Shown here: one piece after another, positions 14,774-56,605 of the stretch | How the letters are laid out: the number at the start of each line of letters is the position of its first letter | Position numbering within the stretch: position 1 is the stretch's first letter | Assembly (NCBI RefSeq): GCF_027921745.1 | Contig: NC_079238.1 | Location: 2,170,001-2,234,000 of the forward strand | Source: Schizosaccharomyces osmophilus | Taxonomy: Eukaryota; Ascomycota; Schizosaccharomycetes; Schizosaccharomycetales; Schizosaccharomycetaceae | DNA length: 64,000 nt | Direction of reading: 5' to 3' | Made by a program: the position numbers and the translations under genes | The notes under the pieces: model-generated | What the model was told of the DNA's origin: nothing | Seen by the model: only the letters and a program-made list of their open reading frames with translations | Databases searched by the model: none

Positions 14774-14846
14774 GGCCTCGTGGCCCAATGGTCAAGGCGC
14801 CTGACTACGGATCAGGAGATTCCAGGTTCGACTCCTGGCGGGGTCA
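14774..14846 (+). tRNA. tRNA-Arg, anticodon ACG
   Basis: A 73-base cloverleaf. The acceptor stem GGCCTCG pairs with CGGGGTC (two G-T wobbles). The anticodon stem is CCTGA/TCAGG, around loop CTACGGA, so the anticodon is ACG (read as ICG), charging arginine. The T arm holds GGTTCGACTCC, which is also the Pol III B box. A T5 terminator follows at about 14850. No intron. Confidence 0.95.
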
Positions 14847-22388: not shown

Positions 22389-23401
22389 AACGTTTGCACT
22401 TATACTATCGAGCTTAAAGAAAATCCCAAAATACTTTATACTAATACAACTTGAGTCTCAAACCCTAGCATAAAGCTGCAAAGTTTCCACCCGTTGGGTT
22501 TTGAAGGTGTAGTGCTCGTTCCTCTTCTGAAGAAAGTACAGCTTTTGTAAAATTATATCTTTCTGGCTCTTTGCTTTTAAGAAAATAAAGAGTGGATAAT
22601 CTTTAATAAGTTTACTGATTTTGAATTTACTTTACCGTAACAGAACACAGATGCTACTTAATTGTTGCTAGTTTAGGTAGATAAATTTACATAAAGTTGT
22701 TAAGTCAGCAAATGTATAGTTAAGTTCCTATTCAATAGCTGGTTCTTCTATATGGTACTACCTAGAAAGCACTGCACTCTATAGCTGCTACAGTTAATAT
22801 ACTTAAGTCTTTGTTTGTTTACACTTAAGGGTAAGATCATCTTTGGGTACTAAAAGTGAGAATGGGATTGCCTTCTTTTAATTATAATTCAGCTAATAAT
22901 GATATGATTACCTGTATCAATTAGCATAGTTGTATAAACAACTGCGAAGCCAAAGGTGATTCAGCCTCAATTGAAGCAAACAGATATATTGTCGAAACTT
23001 AAAAGCTAAGTACTATTTCTCCTCTTCTTAAATAATTAGACGCCTATGTATCAAGGTCAATTACCTATAAACAGTCTCAATTGATGTCAAAAACCTGTAA
23101 CTCATGAGACAGCCGATTCCATCATCATAAGAACATAGTCTTTCAAAACAGTTCAAAAACCCACATGTCCCTCTCACTTGCTTCTAGTACTGCATTCAAC
23201 AACATATTCTTTTTTTGGATAAACATTGAATAGAGCATTTTTGATCAATATCCAAAGACATAAATCTCTTAATTCGCCCACAATCTAAGCGATTACCCAT
23301 TCATTCCTTTATTGCTCTTTCATCTTAAAAGCCACAATCGCACAGACTCAAGATACTTTCAATATCGATCTTCTTGACAATTTGCATAAATCAAATTGTT
23401 C
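22389..23401. other. 1-kb divergent intergenic region, mcs6/meu22, with FLEX motif
   Basis: An unusually long promoter region between divergent genes. On the minus strand 22810-22822 reads GTAAACAAACAAA, a perfect core of the FLEX element bound by Mei4. It lies about 580 bases from the meu22 ATG and 420 from mcs6. No open frame or RNA gene is recognised in the rest. Confidence 0.55.
22810..22822 (-). promoter_or_regulatory. FLEX element (Mei4 site) in the meu22/mcs6 promoter region
   Basis: A 13-base match to the FLEX core GTAAACAAACAAA on the minus strand. meu genes were named for meiotic up-regulation in S. pombe, which makes meu22 the likelier target. Function is inferred. Confidence 0.5.
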
Positions 23402-26000: not shown

Positions 26001-27612
26001 GTTGGAATTTGAAGTACCATAAACGATAGAAAACGAATGCAATTTTGGTTATGTGTACAAAAGAAATCAAAAAAAGGTTACCAAAGACTCCCAGTTTCGC
26101 AAAACGCGTAAAACAAATGTCAAGAAATTACTACAAAAAAACTTTGTAAACAAAAGACTCCAAATTAAATAATTCCTTGGAAAACCCTACCAGAAAAAAA
26201 CCGTTATTCTGCAGAGTGAATGGGTTTCGAGAATGCTATGGAGGTGCAAAGGTTAGGTAGAGCCTTAATCTCTTGGCAGTTCTTCTCATGTCCTCGTTTG
26301 GTTTTAGTGGACATGGCTAACGATGAGTAGTAGCGGCACTGTTCCTCTTGTTAAATGAGAATAGCGCTACGTAAAGCGCTTTCCTTGGTAAATAAATATA
26401 GTTATTGAATAAATTAACCAAAAAAATCACACCAAAGAAACGATGAATGAATCATTAGAAAAATCGTAAAATTTTTTTACTAATGAAAATAGAAATAAAG
26501 CTTATGGAGGAGTCTGTAGTGTTGAGAGCACCATAATAAATATTATGAAACGTAAACGTCTTTACAAATCCAATGAATGCATGCTATTGTATGAGGAATT
26601 CACAAAAACGAATATTACTTTCCATTAGTTATTGAACAAGAATACTACCGAAAAAGCACGAAATAAGATATTCCAAAATGGAATGCTTTTGCATTTGTGT
26701 TTTTGTTTACTAATGAAGGATCAAGACCATCGTTAAACAATTCCGTTTTCGCTGGAAGCATAAAGAAAAAATGAAATTCTTCTCTATGAAGCTAAACAAA
26801 TAATTAAAACCATTTTCATACATTTTTTTCGAATATACTATGTATTTTGTTCGACCCATTTCATATATATTACCCTTTTTTAACATATACAGGGTTAGGG
26901 TTGTCATCAAAAGTAGCTATAAAAGCGGTCTTACTCGCACTTATGTTTTCATTGTGCGTCAAAGCATTTTGCAAAAGCTAGCGTATCTGTTTCTTGCCTT
27001 TTACCAGAAACAGCCGTTTGCAAGGTGTGCTAATTTGACTGTTTAGTTTTTGTAACCCGTTTCTAAAGCTTTCAGCTTTAGGAAATCTTTACCAATGTTG
27101 GAGCATCGCTCTTGGATAGGTAATGGTTTTTTGAAGCTTAGTAGAAGCTTGGTTTACACTTGGTGCCATATTTTGTGTTTTATAAGTTTGGTGATACAGG
27201 TCTACGAAGAGTTTCTAAGTTTGTACTGGGTTTCTTGCTCTTCTGGAATGGAAGTATTTGACTTAGAAATAGAACAGATAGTAGTAAAAGGTAGCTTCTT
27301 TTTGAGATCGAACGAATGTCTTTTTAGTATGCGGTTTCTTTGTGGATTATGAGGTATAGTGTGTGAGGAAGTTTTTATTTTTTATTTTTTTAAAAACGTA
27401 GAGGAATAATAAGAATGGTTGATTGAAGCCTTTGTATGCTGAATGTATGTGTTCCAAATTAGTTTTTAGGTTTTTGGTTGGAGAGACAGCATTAGTTGGA
27501 AGGAGTATTTGAGCCAACGTTGTAGGAAATATTTATACACTCCTCCCTTTATGGAATCTTGTTGCCGAAATATAGCTGCTATTGTCTTCTTCTTTTCTCC
27601 TGCAAAACAAAC
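26001..27612. other. 1.6-kb gene-free stretch with possible structured RNA
   Basis: No convincing protein gene on either strand. Two short open frames (26840-27046, 27095-27352) look like random AT-rich sequence. Visible structure: a perfect 7-bp stem CATGTCC (26288-26294) with GGACATG (26310-26316); a 6-bp stem AGCGCT (26363-26368 and 26375-26380); and a hairpin around 27059-27085. A TATAAAAG-like box is near 26928. A noncoding transcript is possible but unproven. Confidence 0.45.
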
Positions 27613-50911: not shown

Positions 50912-51206
50912 AAACAAAAATTTTGAAATCAAAGATTTCCGTTGAGATGAAACTAAAGTATTATCTCTAGATCAAAGCCAAGCTTTTAATAAAGTTAGCA
51001 ATACGAGTTTTCAATGACACAGCTACAACCGAATACAGGGTTTTTAGTAATCCACTGAGGTCGTTCGATGGGGGTAAAAGGACGAGTTTGAGAAAGGGAA
51101 TTATACAAAGGAACTTTTGTTTGAAAAGCACGAAGGTGGTAAGCAAAGAATAAAAGAGATTGCACTTTTAATGACTTATAAATGTATATAAGCCGTACGT
51201 CGAAAC
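50912..51206. other. left edge of the 5S/wtf island
   Basis: About 295 bases without a gene; a TATATA-like element at about 51184 lies just before the first 5S copy. Confidence 0.4.
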
Positions 51207-51331
51207 GTCTACGGCCACACCTAGGCGAAAACACCAGTTCCCGTCGGATCACTGCAGTTAAGCGTCTGAGAGTCTCCTTAGTTCAATACTGTGGTTGGAG
51301 ACAACATGAAAATCCGGGATGCTATAGGCTT
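51207..51331 (+). rRNA. 5S rRNA gene, diverged copy
   Basis: It starts GTCTACGGCCACACCTAGG and ends with GCTATAGGC followed by T5, a Pol III stop. Compared with the second copy at 53755 it has several substitutions and a few extra bases in its 3' half, so it may no longer be functional. It is preceded by a TATATAAG element. Fission yeasts keep 5S genes dispersed through the genome rather than in the rDNA array. Confidence 0.85.
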
Positions 51332-51866
51332 TTTGCAATTCTTGTTCTTTTGTATGCAAGCATCCTGAAGAGTAATGAAAAGACCGGCGGACATCATGAC
51401 AAAAAATGCTTTACTTTCCAACATAAAGATATGCATTTCCAATCCCTTGTTAATTATCATTCAAAGAAACAGCATGGTTGTTTTGCCAAATGTTCCTTTG
51501 TTTACTTTTTGTAATAAACGACGACTCTTTTGAATTATACTATTACGAAAAGTTGCAATGAAAAACCAACGTTGAATAATCGTAACGAGGACTGTGACCA
51601 GTCAGTGACATAATGTCGCTGCTTTTATGAATTAAGACATGCGAAAAGCCATTACCAAGATTTTTTCAAAGTCGTATCTTTGGTTTTAAGGGAACACTCG
51701 TGTTGCAAGATTAGCTTGCTTTTTAAGCAAGGTCCAATTCCTTTTTCTGACAGAATTGTGAAGAGCGGAACCAGTTCCTACGGACTTTTCTCGGCGATTC
51801 AAAAGTTGATTTCGTTTAGAGGGTAAATATCGGTGCTATTTTTTGGTTTGAATTGCCATTGTAAAT
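51332..51866. other. spacer between first 5S copy and wtf gene
   Basis: About 535 bases; no coding frame. It should contain the upstream (long-transcript) promoter of the wtf gene. Confidence 0.45.
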
Positions 51867-53052
51867 ATGAAAAACAAATATACTCCTATTTCAGATTCTG
51901 ATGACTCTTCCAAAACGCTCAATGATGAAAAGTCAGATACGCATTCTGCAGATGGTACGCCTCCTCCGTATTCAGGTAAGATTAGTTGAAATAGAAAGGA
52001 AAGTTTGATTCTTTGTACCCTTGTTGGAACCGTTCATGATGGAAGAATCATGCTTGTTTATTTATTTGTTGGGCTTGAAATTAATAACCTTGTCGAGAAC
52101 TGTCAGCAAACATAATAGACACCTCTATCCTTTTCACAAACAAAGAAATATTACTAATACATTCATTAGCTTCAAATAAATTTATTGATTTAGAAATGGC
52201 TGATGGATCCGCTCAAAATTCCGCCCAAGATACTGTTAATAATACTAGGTCGAGTTCGATGGATAAGTGGCAGATAATAATGTACTTGTTGTTTTTTACA
52301 TCTTTTGTGTATATTATATTTTATGCTATTCTTCTTGTGTTATTTTTCACTTCCAAGGTTTCTGTGAATGCACAAGCCCTTTGGGGGCTTTCTGCTGGCT
52401 GTGCAGCATCCTTTGCATTGTTTCTGTTTGGTAAGTTAGCTATATCTTTTATTTTAAATGATCTAATAAGTATTAGCAATAACTCAAATGCCTAAAGAAT
52501 GGTTCACGCAGGCCAAAAAAGGGCTCACGCAAGCTGGAAGATTAACCAAAAACGTATTGTCAGCTATGTGTATCTCAGTATTATGTGTGTGTTTTCTCGA
52601 CGTCCTCGGTTTCACCGTGTATTATGCTGCAAAGAAGTTCACAGGATTTGAAAAGATAAACAATAATTTTTTCTATGCTGTTTGCTTTGTTAACTTTGTC
52701 TTGTTTCTTTATTTGACGAGTATGTCATACTCCCGTGAAATGTTCTAACTGTTCTAGTGAATGCAAATGCGCGTGAACGACTTAGATTAGTAGTCGTCGA
52801 TATAGGAAACGGTATAGGAAACGGAATAAATGGCTTAGGAAACGGCATAAATGGCTTGGGAAACGGAATAAATGGCTTGGGACACGGCTTGGGAAATGCT
52901 GTGGATCATATGTTCGGTATGTACACTTGGTAAATGCTTCCTATCACAAGGCGTTATTAACCAATTCAAAAGGAACAAATCGAGGAGATGAAGCACCTCG
53001 TAACGAAGAAATTGAACTTCAACCTCTTGCTGAGCAAAGGGCTGAAGTTTGA
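51867..53052 (+). CDS. wtf-family spore-killer gene; looks whole
   Basis: Member of the wtf gene family, selfish meiotic drivers of fission yeasts that are known to make a poison from a short transcript and an antidote from a long one. It starts MKNKYTPISDSDD and the first exon ends in a PPPYS (PY) motif, as is usual in the family. Five exons are visible. The second begins just before an in-frame ATG (MADGSAQ), the place where the short product of this family starts. Four hydrophobic segments follow. The fourth exon carries the short glycine/asparagine repeat (INGLGNG) typical of wtf genes. The reading frame appears whole. The family's Mei4-controlled internal promoter would lie in the first intron, where a loose CAGCAAACATA match is seen. 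It is flanked by 5S genes. Confidence 0.85.
52801..52899 (+). repeat. 21-bp in-frame tandem repeat inside the wtf gene
   Basis: About three units of 21 bases coding INGLGNG, with partial units at each end. Repeats of this kind vary in copy number between wtf genes, and their matching is tied to which antidote works on which poison. Confidence 0.85.
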
Positions 53053-53754
53053 GTTCTACCGAAGCCGCTTTCGTTCTTTACATTCGCTCCTTCTTTGGAA
53101 ACATTGATGTCAATTGCAGTCTACCAAGTTCCTGTATTCGCTTCCACAAAAGCTTGGATCAGATGAAACCAGCAGACTTTGATTGCTTTTCTCATTTCTC
53201 TTTCATGAATCTTCTTATTCGTTTCACGGCATCGTTCTTTTTCTGCATGAATAGACACCCTTTTTAATGATTATTTAATTATTCTGAGGAAAATACCATC
53301 GTAATTAACTAGTTTTTTCCTCAACACTGTGTCGTGTCTTTCATTAATTGTAAGAACGAAACTGATTACCGCCAGAGGTAAAATTCGTTCACAGCATAGA
53401 AAGTATAAATCTTCAGATTGGAAGAATCGATTGATGTAGTTTAAAACATTGAATTACCGTTTACTTTGGGAGTCAAGTCGACGGACCTTGATTCAAGTAG
53501 TACCCAATTTATATTAAGTAACATTTTCAACCCATAAACTCATACACTCAATTGATGCTCCTGCGACCATTATGTGAATCAATAAAAAAGAGAAAACAGT
53601 GTTTTCAAATATTATTCTTATGATTCGAAAGCATTCACCATTTAGCCATGAAGAATACCAGATAGAACTGAGTTGAATTGGATCTTGTAGTTCATCAAGC
53701 CAAATAAAAGACTGGATCATTATTGTATAAATATCTTTACAGACCGTAACAAAC
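53053..53754. other. spacer between wtf gene and second 5S gene
   Basis: About 700 bases with no recognised gene. A TATAAATA element precedes the 5S gene at about 53726. Confidence 0.45.
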
Positions 53755-53873
53755 GTCTACGGCCACACCTAGGCGAAAACACCAGTTCCCGTCCGATCAC
53801 TGCAGTTAAGCGTCTGAGGGTCTCGTTAGTACTATGGTTGGAGACAACATGGGAATCCGGGATGCTGTAGGCT
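53755..53873 (+). rRNA. 5S rRNA gene
   Basis: A 119-base gene, GTCTACGGCCACACCTAGG to GATGCTGTAGGCT, matching fission-yeast 5S rRNA as I know it, including TCACTGCAGTTAAGCGTCTG (internal control region) and GTTGGAGACAACATGGGAAT. A TATA-like box lies upstream and T6 lies just downstream. Looks intact. Confidence 0.93.
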
Positions 53874-54324
53874 TTCTATTTTTTGATTTGTTCAACGTAG
53901 ATTCGTGCTTGGAAATGCTTTTCTTAATTCCCTTCTTGTGAGACGTTACTCGACAAGTAACCGGGAACAAAAAAGGATTACGAATTGTGGATGTAATGAA
54001 ATTACAAATTTTTGATAAAAAACTCAACAATAATATAGTATTTATGCATTTCAATTAGTAGCTGCAGTAAGTCTTCCGTTTTCGATTTCTACTCATTGCC
54101 TTTGAGATGAGAAGTTAAATGCATGTCTTTTAATTGCGGTCATCAATTCAAATTAATACAAGGTTGTTTCTTAGTTTCAAGCCATTTCCAACTGAAATTG
54201 AAATAGCCAAATAAAAAAGAATATAGATAATGGTTCATCAAAGCAATTCATAACCGATTGCGATCTGCGTTAGCCGAAGAGTCTAAAAGACTAGAGTATA
54301 GAAGACAAATGAACGGATCTAAGT
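53874..54324. other. spacer between second 5S gene and the membrane-protein gene
   Basis: About 450 bases with no recognised gene. Confidence 0.45.
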
Positions 54325-55131
54325 TTAAGTAGTAGGGTTGATATCCGTCGGTGGAGGAGCCAGTGCATTGTCTCTTTGCTGATAGCTCGGAAGCGTAGGC
54401 GCTCTCGTGTGATCTGTTGAGCTAACAAAATCTAAACCAAGACAGGCTTAAAGAGTGAAATACAATACATAGCTCACACCGCAAATTATGATACCTACAC
54501 AGTACATCAAGGTACCTACGACCATACCAATGATTTTTCCAATAGCACTGAAAAGGAATGGAAAGACACAACCCATCAAGATGACCACATAAAGCAATCC
54601 TCTAACAGTTCCGAGAATAAATGAATGAAGGCCTAATATTTTTGTTAGTAAACAATCAAATGTATCGATAAATTGGATATGGTTGAACTCACAAAAAAAA
54701 GCAGCTAGAAATATTATGAATATCACAACATGAATCATTAGAGGATTTAAGGGCTACTTGTCCCAATCTTTAATGCCATCGACTAGAAAAGCATATGTTC
54801 GGAAGTAGCAAGATATTGCACAGACACACACCAAAGAGGGAATAATTGTAGATAACAGTCGTTGCGACTTCTCTTTAAGAACTACATTGCCGGGAAAATC
54901 CCCATTTAGGAATTGTAAAGCTTCACGTTTCCTTTCTTCGCAAAAGGAAGGAAAATCGCTTAATTGATCCATAAATATATCTTTCTTCTCTTTGACTTTC
55001 AAAGAACCTGAATTGGGTGATTTGTTTGTGTCCTGTGGTATGTTCAAAGGAAGTCCCTTTTCGAGATCATCATCGTAAACATCGGCATGGCTGTACGCAG
55101 GAAGATCGCTTGAAATATTAATACTAGACAT
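54325..55131 (-). CDS. unidentified multi-span membrane protein beside the wtf gene (possible wtf-associated family)
   Basis: Starts at the ATG at 55131 (MSSINISSDLPAYSHADVYD). The N-terminal part is cytosolic, with LPAY and an acidic DDDLEKGLPL that recalls the DLEKG of wtf first exons, then one membrane span (LLSTIIPSLVCVCAISCYF). A second block, 54738-54448, codes at least two more hydrophobic segments (FILGTVRGLLYVVILMGCVF). A last exon ending at 54325 codes a proline-rich tail with APPPTDINP. The exon joins could not be resolved with confidence, so whether it is whole is unknown. I recall that wtf genes of other fission yeasts are accompanied by wag (wtf-associated) genes; this could be one. 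It shows no other family mark. Confidence 0.5.
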
Positions 55132-56605
55132 TATTGTATACTTGAATGGCTCTTCAGCACTTCAAGCGTAACAGATTAGAGCAGTCGTAGTTTTCTTCTA
55201 ACTACAAAGCTTATTAATCACGATCAAATCAATTCAAAAACAAAGTCCAAAAACTCGTCCAACGGCAAAGAAATGAAAGAAAAAGATGCTGGCTCCTGCA
55301 AGAAATTTCGCATCACCAACACAGTGTCGAGTCACAAATCAAGTAACGCAATTCGTTAGCTTTGCGTTTATTTATATTTCTGTAAACAAAGCAGTTTTTA
55401 GAAAAAATCGTGCACACATTATGTTATTTTTTAAAAAAAAATAGTTTCAAGTTGTTGATTGTCGAAAATAACATATAACCGAAAGAGTCCTTTGGTTAAC
55501 CAAACCATAGAGAGAAATTTATGTAGGAGCGAATTGCATCTTGTGTAAACTTCCTAGACTTTTCTGTTTTTCTGTGTTTTCTCTTCTATTACTTTCTATA
55601 TGTATTCTCTACCATATCCATCTTATTTTTCAGTGTAGCTGTCTACCAGACTCTTTGTTTACTCACGGATCCCTTTCTAGTGAACTGTGCTATCCACGAC
55701 GACTCAATTCCTTACAAAAGCACACTGAAAAGCAAAGACGCAAACAGCAGCATTAGGAAATACGATGTAAAACAAATAAAAGCTGAAGAGACCTTTTCAT
55801 GTCCTATTTTTACCCTTGCTTGAGGCATCAAAACAAACATCATACTAGTATCATACTATAGGTTTGTTAGTACGGATGTTACCCCCACCTTCCTTCCATC
55901 CTCAGGAAGCCCAGCCCAGCCGAACCGTCCATCTTTCTCGCCAACCCATGACTGCGTAAACCGTGTGGGGGTAGTTTACTTCTGGCTGGTTTTTTTTTTG
56001 ATTTGGATTGATTAGAATTTCTTTTTTCATTCAGTATTTTTTTATTTATATTTCTTGCTTTCTTTTTCGTTTTCCTTATATAATGTTACCATTCGTTACC
56101 TTTTTCTTTATAATGTACGAAATATGATTGGCGACTGAAAAGCAAGAAACCGCTCTCGTGTCCAATAAAATGTCTTAAATAACTCTCTATACATGACGTA
56201 ATACTCACCTTTGTTCTATTCTTATCTCGGTAACCCATTCGTTTTCCTATGTACTCTAGTCCTTACGATTATATACTTGCTGCGCTTATATGCGGATCAA
56301 TCAACTGTGATATAATTATATTTGTACGAACACCTAGAAAACATATATATACGGAAGATGATGCAAAACCACTACCAACATTTTACCCTCCCCCATCATT
56401 TTTTCATTTTTGAAAAGTCAGGTTAAAGAGACATCTATGAGTGTACTATAAATGCTCTAATTGTGATTCTCTTTTTCTTTTAGTTTTGTACGAAGAAGCA
56501 CTTTTAGTTTTTTCGTATACGTTTGTTTAACCCATCACACCCATCTCATCTCGGATCCTTTTTTAATATAGAGACGAAAGATAAAACAGCAAAGACTAAC
56601 TCAAA
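55132..56605. other. 1.5-kb promoter region of kgd2 and right edge of the island
   Basis: No protein gene is recognised. It contains a pair of inverted GTGGGGGTA sites (listed separately), a GTAAACAAA forkhead core at 55382-55390 and a C-rich patch near 55908-55950. A long T/C-rich leader-like stretch precedes kgd2, which suggests a strong promoter with a long 5' leader. Confidence 0.45.
55880..55973. promoter_or_regulatory. inverted pair of GTGGGGGTA sites upstream of kgd2
   Basis: TACCCCCAC at 55880-55888 and GTGGGGGTA at 55965-55973 are exact complements, 76 bases apart. GTGGGG is the core read by C2H2 zinc-finger glucose repressors (Mig1/CreA type; Scr1 in fission yeast) and similar to stress elements. 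A role in glucose control of kgd2 is inferred. Confidence 0.4.

What the first reader, a model, noticed from the sequence alone, without database searches (positions are those of the whole stretch)
50912..55400. Accessory 5S-wtf-5S island inserted in an otherwise conserved gene block
Between mis20 and kgd2, which I recall as adjacent in S. pombe, this genome carries about 4 kb with two 5S rRNA genes, one whole-looking wtf gene and an unidentified membrane-protein gene. wtf genes are meiotic drivers, and 5S genes that flank them give repeated sequence for ectopic recombination and spread. The rest of the 64-kb window is nearly collinear with S. pombe, so the island stands out as the mobile part.
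Basis: partly seen in the sequence, partly recalled or inferred. Interest (0 to 1): 0.7.

Follow-up and report, generated by a model that had tools for sequence, protein, structure and literature searches.

The report
Known 5S-flanked selfish gene in yeast
This is a likely spore-killer gene of a fission yeast sitting between two 5S ribosomal RNA genes, next to a broken gene of a little-known membrane-protein family; the arrangement is of a type already published for this species, here with clear marks of DNA copied between distant chromosome sites.

Summary
Window 51207 to about 55404 is made of repeats found elsewhere in the genome: 5S (with an insertion) / 5-exon wtf with open frame / 5S / broken membrane-protein gene. 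The genome fits the S. osmophilus type strain CBS 15793T. The wtf-5S association, spread of wtf genes to 5S genes, and a wtf presence/absence difference ascribed to 5S-5S recombination are already published, for this species too. The core finding is known.

Added here: (1) the unidentified gene is not the published 'wag' by position or profile. It is a pseudogene of the Pfam DUF999 (PF06198) family, called S. pombe specific and mapped near telomeres there. Here it is a second 5S-linked family: 11 of 12 copies in hand lie beside a 5S gene or relic. (2) The wtf locus is a mosaic: its 5' part shares a deletion junction with two other loci, while exons 2-3 are about 99% identical to a chromosome-2 locus with a different junction. 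(3) 44 clean 5S copies show all four combinations of two variants, suggesting exchange inside 5S genes.

Presence/absence at this locus elsewhere could not be tested.

The parts
51207..51330 (+). Left 5S rRNA gene copy, insertion-bearing (5-nt insertion, several substitutions); TATA-like run just upstream
   Evidence: Rfam RF00001 67.6 bits; 58-copy alignment; TATA-like run read by eye
51331..51413 (+). 5S-proximal spacer ('lead'); ends at a wag-deletion junction (about 51413-51419) of the same kind as in L044, and spanned by L003
51414..51866 (+). wtf upstream region, repeated at other wtf loci
51867..53052 (+). wtf gene, open frame: exons 51867-51975, 52194-52430, 52498-52719, 52758-52916, 52973-53052; long (antidote-like) product 268 aa with PPPY motif
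   Evidence: splicing and translation; model projected on 14 copies
52196..53052 (+). Predicted poison-isoform start: in-frame ATG at the start of exon 2, 231 aa
   Evidence: family feature from PMC9562144
52148..52800 (.). Tract nearly identical to the chromosome-2 wtf in L037 (G000:C2:2292176-2293372), introns 2 and 3 included: probable gene-conversion tract
   Evidence: best segment 51949-53063
52758..52916 (+). Exon 4 with GNGINGL-type 7-aa repeats
   Evidence: IGNXXXG repeat published for S. osmophilus
53053..53754 (+). wtf 3' flank up to the right 5S gene, repeated at other wtf loci
53755..53873 (+). Right 5S rRNA gene, canonical, haplotype C12-T67-A108, identical to 5S copies in five other loci in hand (L013, L018, L019, L020, L050)
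53874..54448 (-). Downstream region of the DUF999-type gene, repeated with it next to other 5S genes
54449..55131 (-). DUF999-type membrane-protein pseudogene (premature stop at codon 126, second stop at codon 228); convergent with the 5S gene
55132..55404 (-). Upstream region of the DUF999-type gene; right limit of repeated DNA

Best explanation
The island is a composite of two 5S-anchored dispersed repeats of S. osmophilus: a 5S-wtf unit whose wag gene was deleted, and a 5S-DUF999 unit with a dead gene. The wtf gene has the anatomy of a driver: a long product with a PY motif from exon 1 (antidote) and a short product from the exon 2 ATG (poison). It probably came to this site, or was rewritten here, by ectopic recombination (gene conversion or circle integration) using dispersed 5S genes and other wtf copies as homology. 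Shown: anatomy, multi-copy nature, 5S anchoring, mosaic sequence. Inferred: deletion (rather than later gain) of wag, 5S as the entry point at this very site, and driver activity.
For: 5S anchoring: 28 of 39 wtf clusters have a 5S within 3 kb, random mean 1.7. Matches of the 51000-51600 query start within 6 bases of the 5S start or to its right. Mosaicism: the 5' part has the wag-less junction seen in L044 (C2) and aligns continuously with L003 (C1), whereas exons 2-3 are about 99% identical to L037 (C2), whose junction differs. Best segment 51949-53063 has 15 substitutions in 1096 sites against 90.9% identity outside; 0 of 2000 shuffles reach the score; likewise against L018, 52534-53620, 29 in 1038 against 82.1% outside. 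5S exchange: among 44 clean 5S copies all four combinations of sites 12 and 67 occur (CTA 11, TTA 9, CCG 8, TCG 15, CTT 1), and T67 copies are the ones near wtf (15 of 21 against 4 of 23, Fisher p = 0.0006). The order 5S-wtf-5S-DUF999 occurs at 8 of 39 wtf clusters (coordinates). Published: where wtf is lacking at the orthologous site, relatives have a 5S gene in 11 of 12 (S. osmophilus against S. cryophilus) and 5 of 6 (S. octosporus) comparisons; ectopic recombination among wtf genes of this species.
Against: No orthologous site from another isolate or species was in reach, so insertion at a pre-existing 5S here is unproven, and loss elsewhere is possible. The position shuffle ignores uneven constraint along the gene. 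The four 5S haplotypes could in part come from repeated mutation, and related copies are not independent in the Fisher test. 11 of 39 wtf clusters have no pattern-level 5S within 3 kb, though some of these have insertion-bearing 5S copies (L012, L045, L046). No exact FLEX motif in intron 1; none of the 31 intact S. osmophilus wtf genes in print has a confident one. No Pfam WTF (PF03303) match in the genome, but that search rang in no control either.
Confidence: 0.85

Rival explanations
1. Old resident locus: the wtf gene has sat here since before S. osmophilus split from its relatives. Later gene conversion from other wtf genes made it look recent, and the 5S genes are only neighbours.
For: Conversion can overwrite old genes (PMC9562144 passage). 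41 of 42 wtf loci of one strain are shared by the other. The left 5S gene is insertion-bearing and 90% identical to the right one, so the flanking pair is not freshly duplicated.
Against: Published synteny finds a 5S gene at most orthologous sites without wtf. The unit has the same wag-less junction as another locus and aligns through it with a third.
Confidence: 0.3
2. The wtf is an inert or antidote-only copy, so the island is a passenger and not an active driver.
For: No exact FLEX motif in intron 1, and the neighbouring DUF999-type gene is dead.
Against: Open frame of five exons, in-frame ATG at the start of exon 2, PPPY motif, repeats. Lack of FLEX does not preclude the short transcript in S. 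octosporus.
Confidence: 0.35
3. The right-hand gene is simply a wag gene as published, and the island is a 5S-wtf-5S-wag tandem that lost its second wtf.
For: The gene is convergent with a 5S gene, multi-copy and often near wtf genes. Its N-terminus has LPxY and DLEKG motifs like the wag-type ORF.
Against: wag is described as lying between wtf and the upstream 5S; a different ORF family is found there. Profile comparison of the two gives E = 0.04, probability 1.3. Of the sequences scanned, only this family matches DUF999.
Confidence: 0.15

Closest known systems
5S rDNA-wtf units of S. osmophilus and S. octosporus (De Carvalho et al. 2022, PMC9562144)
   Same: 5-exon wtf with in-frame exon 2 ATG, tandem orientation with flanking 5S genes, repeated intergenic sequence
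   Different: Nothing categorical; this locus is of the wag-less type and is followed by a 5S-DUF999 unit
5S-mediated presence/absence of wtf31 and ectopic recombination among wtf genes in S. osmophilus (Jia et al. 2023, PMC10085805)
   Same: Tandem 5S genes flank the wtf; patchwork identity between wtf copies
   Different: No presence/absence shown for this locus; the junction marker and the 5S haplotype analysis are additions made here
DUF999 (PF06198) family, called S. pombe specific, mapped near telomeres of chromosomes I and II in S. pombe (PMC6048312, PMC7712723; passages)
   Same: Intact relatives in this genome exceed the Pfam cut-off; a multi-copy, recombining family
   Different: Here also at interior sites, beside 5S genes; the window copy is broken
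wag gene family (PMC9562144)
   Same: 5S-linked, multi-copy, N-terminal tail with PY-type motifs
   Different: Sits between wtf and the upstream 5S; no significant profile similarity to the window gene

Membership tests
wtf killer meiotic driver | Five-exon structure with open frame | tested here: met
   Exons of 109, 237, 222, 159 and 80 nt, 268 aa
wtf killer meiotic driver | In-frame alternate ATG at the start of exon 2 | tested here: met
   ATG at 52196, 231-aa product
wtf killer meiotic driver | Single PY motif in the antidote N-tail, as stated for S. osmophilus (PMC10721834, passages) | tested here: met
   One match only, PPPY, in the exon 1 part
wtf killer meiotic driver | 7-aa repeats in exon 4 (IGNXXXG type) | tested here: met
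   IGNGIGNGINGLGNGINGLG...; published repeat
wtf killer meiotic driver | FLEX motif in intron 1 (present in part of the family only) | tested here: not met
   No exact match. Not a defining feature in S. osmophilus: 0 of 31 intact genes have a confident one
wtf killer meiotic driver | Match to Pfam WTF (PF03303) | tested here: inconclusive
   No match at E up to 10 in this genome, and no control genome rang; none for the spliced product. The most similar S. pombe-S. octosporus wtf pair in print shares only 16%
wtf killer meiotic driver | Spore killing and antidote activity | not testable with these tools
   Needs crosses
DUF999 (PF06198) | Profile match above the gathering score | tested here: inconclusive
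   Met by relatives, not by the window copy itself. L042 copy 29.6 bits (cut-off 25); 4 of 9 genome hits over the cut-off, the window copy not among the nine. The window fragment alone scores 15.8, but the window protein read through its stop is 79% identical to the L042 protein
wag | Located between wtf and an upstream 5S, divergent from wtf | tested here: not met
   The gene lies downstream of wtf and outside the 5S pair, convergent with wtf
5S-mediated spread of wtf | Lone 5S at the orthologous site of a relative lacking wtf | not testable with these tools

The most novel reading that the evidence does not exclude
In S. osmophilus, dispersed 5S genes act as a shared dock for several fast-evolving membrane-protein families (wtf, wag and DUF999), which are copied together and reshuffled by recombination inside the 5S genes. 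DUF999, known as a subtelomeric S. pombe family, is an old companion of wtf loci, possibly hitchhiking on drive or modifying it.
Probability: 0.3. Interest if true: 0.5.

Novelty: already known. Interest (0 to 1): 0.3.

Why it matters
The island is a clean example of how a selfish gene family spreads through ordinary repeated genes, already established in print. The additions are modest but testable: DUF999-type genes are not confined to S. pombe and lie beside 5S genes, often at wtf loci, and the deletion junctions and 5S haplotypes give discrete markers for tracing which locus donated to which.

Tried and rejected
Common origin of wtf, wag and DUF999: the three share N-terminal PY-type motifs, wag and DUF999 share DLEKG, and wtf and the intact DUF999 copy share a C-terminal EEIELQ. 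Profile comparison does not support it: wtf-DUF999 E 0.054, wag-DUF999 E 0.04, wtf-wag E 0.0009 over 13 residues with probability 23 (shallow alignments). Left as unproven.

wtf identification through Pfam: no match for the spliced product or in the genome. A retrotransposon gag search as a species marker gave nothing and rang in no control, so it says nothing. The wtf stretch 51860-53060 has no near match in the plasmid collection.

Single deletion origin for all wag-less units: not supported; two different junctions are seen among the five short units printed.

Structure prediction was not tried: a spliced protein is not a contiguous reading of the window, and a single-sequence membrane model would be poor.
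Full report
What is there. The window is G000:C1:2170001-2234000. The genome's contigs of 5,565,604, 3,504,162 and 2,342,500 bases fit the three chromosomes of the S. osmophilus type strain CBS 15793T, given as 5.57, 3.50 and 2.35 Mb (PMC10085805, section 23 read); the third is 2.34 rather than 2.35 here. The tools named no species, so this is an inference from size and content. Rfam finds two 5S genes in the region, both +. Between them a five-exon wtf gene has an open frame of 268 aa, a PPPY motif in the exon 1 part, an in-frame ATG at the start of exon 2 and seven-residue repeats in exon 4. Projection of the same model onto 14 other copies gives frames that reach the normal end in 11 of 14; L015, L019 and L038 do not. 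Splice dinucleotides are kept at most but not all projected sites, with CG or GG at some projected acceptors and GG at one donor.

The third gene. The - strand gene at 54449-55131 has a premature stop at codon 126 and another at codon 228, where the intact copy in L042 reads on. The copy in L050, beside another 5S-wtf-5S locus on chromosome 1, has a stop at the same place, and a third copy at C1:3519786 also has one TAG (not fetched, place not compared). A dead gene was therefore probably copied with the island or spread by conversion. The intact relative in L042 matches Pfam DUF999 at E 7.9e-7, over the curated cut-off. A genome search with that family lists nine places, four over the cut-off. 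All nine overlap matches of the DNA search with the window gene; the window copy itself is not among the nine. Of the 12 copies in hand (window, L017, L020, L024, L030, L031, L034, L035, L036, L042, L049, L050), 11 have a convergent 5S gene or 5S relic on the 3' side; L035 does not. L031 and L036 were fetched for their 5S genes, so they favour this count; without them it is 9 of 10. Other papers describe DUF999 as S. [quoted passage not shown] Seven papers in the library mention DUF999 (listing). The term does not occur in the main text of PMC9562144, PMC10085805, PMC10721834 or PMC12930445. The link of DUF999 to 5S-wtf loci was thus not found in print by these searches; supplements were not seen.

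Already published. PMC9562144 (outline; sections 5, 7, 10 and 19 and part 1 of section 6 read; passages) reports that 33 of 42 S. [quoted passage not shown] PMC10085805 (sections 18, 23 and 29 read, passages of others) reports one presence/absence case ascribed to tandem 5S genes and ectopic recombination between wtf copies.

Unit types. In 7 of 8 upstream spacers examined, wag-type ORFs lie between the upstream 5S and wtf; L047 has none. The window and five other loci lack them (rows 1-6: L001-L006, of which L002, L004, L005 and L006 lie in L044, L019, L038 and L037). The junctions differ: the window and L044 join the 5S-side spacer to the promoter at a short TTCC-like microhomology, while L037, L019 and L038 have another junction. 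L003 aligns continuously across the window's junction.

Mosaic. Best matches along the island change: L003 and L044 for the left 5S and spacer, L018 and L020 for the promoter, L037 for exons 2-3, L018 around exon 5, then L019, L020 and L018 in the 3' flank. Against L037, 7 difference columns fall in 52100-52799, introns included, and 13 in 52800-52899, the exon 4 repeats. The best segment is 51949-53063 with 15 substitutions in 1096 sites; outside it identity is 90.9%, and 0 of 2000 shuffles reach the score. Against L018 the best segment is 52534-53620, again 0 of 2000. Since L037 carries the other junction, the window gene combines two unit lineages. A discrete marker thus agrees with the identity profile.

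5S genes. Of 58 5S copies aligned from the loci in hand, 44 are 119 nt long and 14 are longer through insertions. All 14 lie in loci with wtf or DUF999 matches. Among the 44, sites 12, 67 and 108 give haplotypes CTA 11, TTA 9, CCG 8, TCG 15 and CTT 1. T67 copies have a wtf match within 3 kb in 15 of 21 cases, C67 copies in 4 of 23. This suggests a wtf-travelling 5S lineage, a resident lineage, and exchange between them; repeated mutation is a weaker alternative. The sample covers the fetched loci only. The pattern search found 82 5S genes in the genome, the Rfam search scored 47 of 362 candidates, and PMC9562144 gives 107 for the other strain.

Architecture. The order 5S-wtf-5S-DUF999 is seen at 8 of 39 wtf clusters: the window; C1 near 1.10, 2.51, 2.72, 3.52 and 5.13 Mb; C2 near 0.99 Mb; C3 near 1.98 Mb. 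The window, C1 1.10 (L020, where the inner 5S is insertion-bearing) and C2 0.99 (L030) were read in sequence; the rest rest on match coordinates, with a part of C1 2.51 in L050.

Mechanism. Most likely the island formed when a wtf unit entered, or was converted at, a site already holding a 5S gene, perhaps a 5S-DUF999 site like L049, where no wtf match was found. It was then reshaped by conversion from other loci. The wtf should act as a poison-antidote driver; its near twin on chromosome 2 may encode a matching antidote. The first statement is inference supported by published synteny; the driver action is inference from family knowledge.

Verdict. The identity of the third gene and the junction and 5S markers are small additions.

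Noticed in passing
G000:C1:2582479-2582602: A 5S copy 94% identical over the full 124 nt of the window's insertion-bearing left 5S, with no wtf match nearby: possibly a scar of a lost wtf unit.
   Followed up: no
L009, L011, L048 (near chromosome ends): Lone 5S genes keep about 60 bp upstream that resemble the wtf 3' flank (82-84% over about 60 bp).
   Followed up: no
window 22812-22822: An exact FLEX (Mei4-site) sequence on the - strand, expected 0.09 times by chance (8 of 100 shuffles had one).
   Followed up: no
window 26958-27071 and 14774-14846: U5 spliceosomal RNA gene and a tRNA gene by Rfam.
   Followed up: no
L042 2286-3004: Intact DUF999-type protein (299 aa) with an IGN-type repeat and a C-terminal EEIELQ motif, both reminiscent of wtf; profile comparison does not support homology.
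   Followed up: partly
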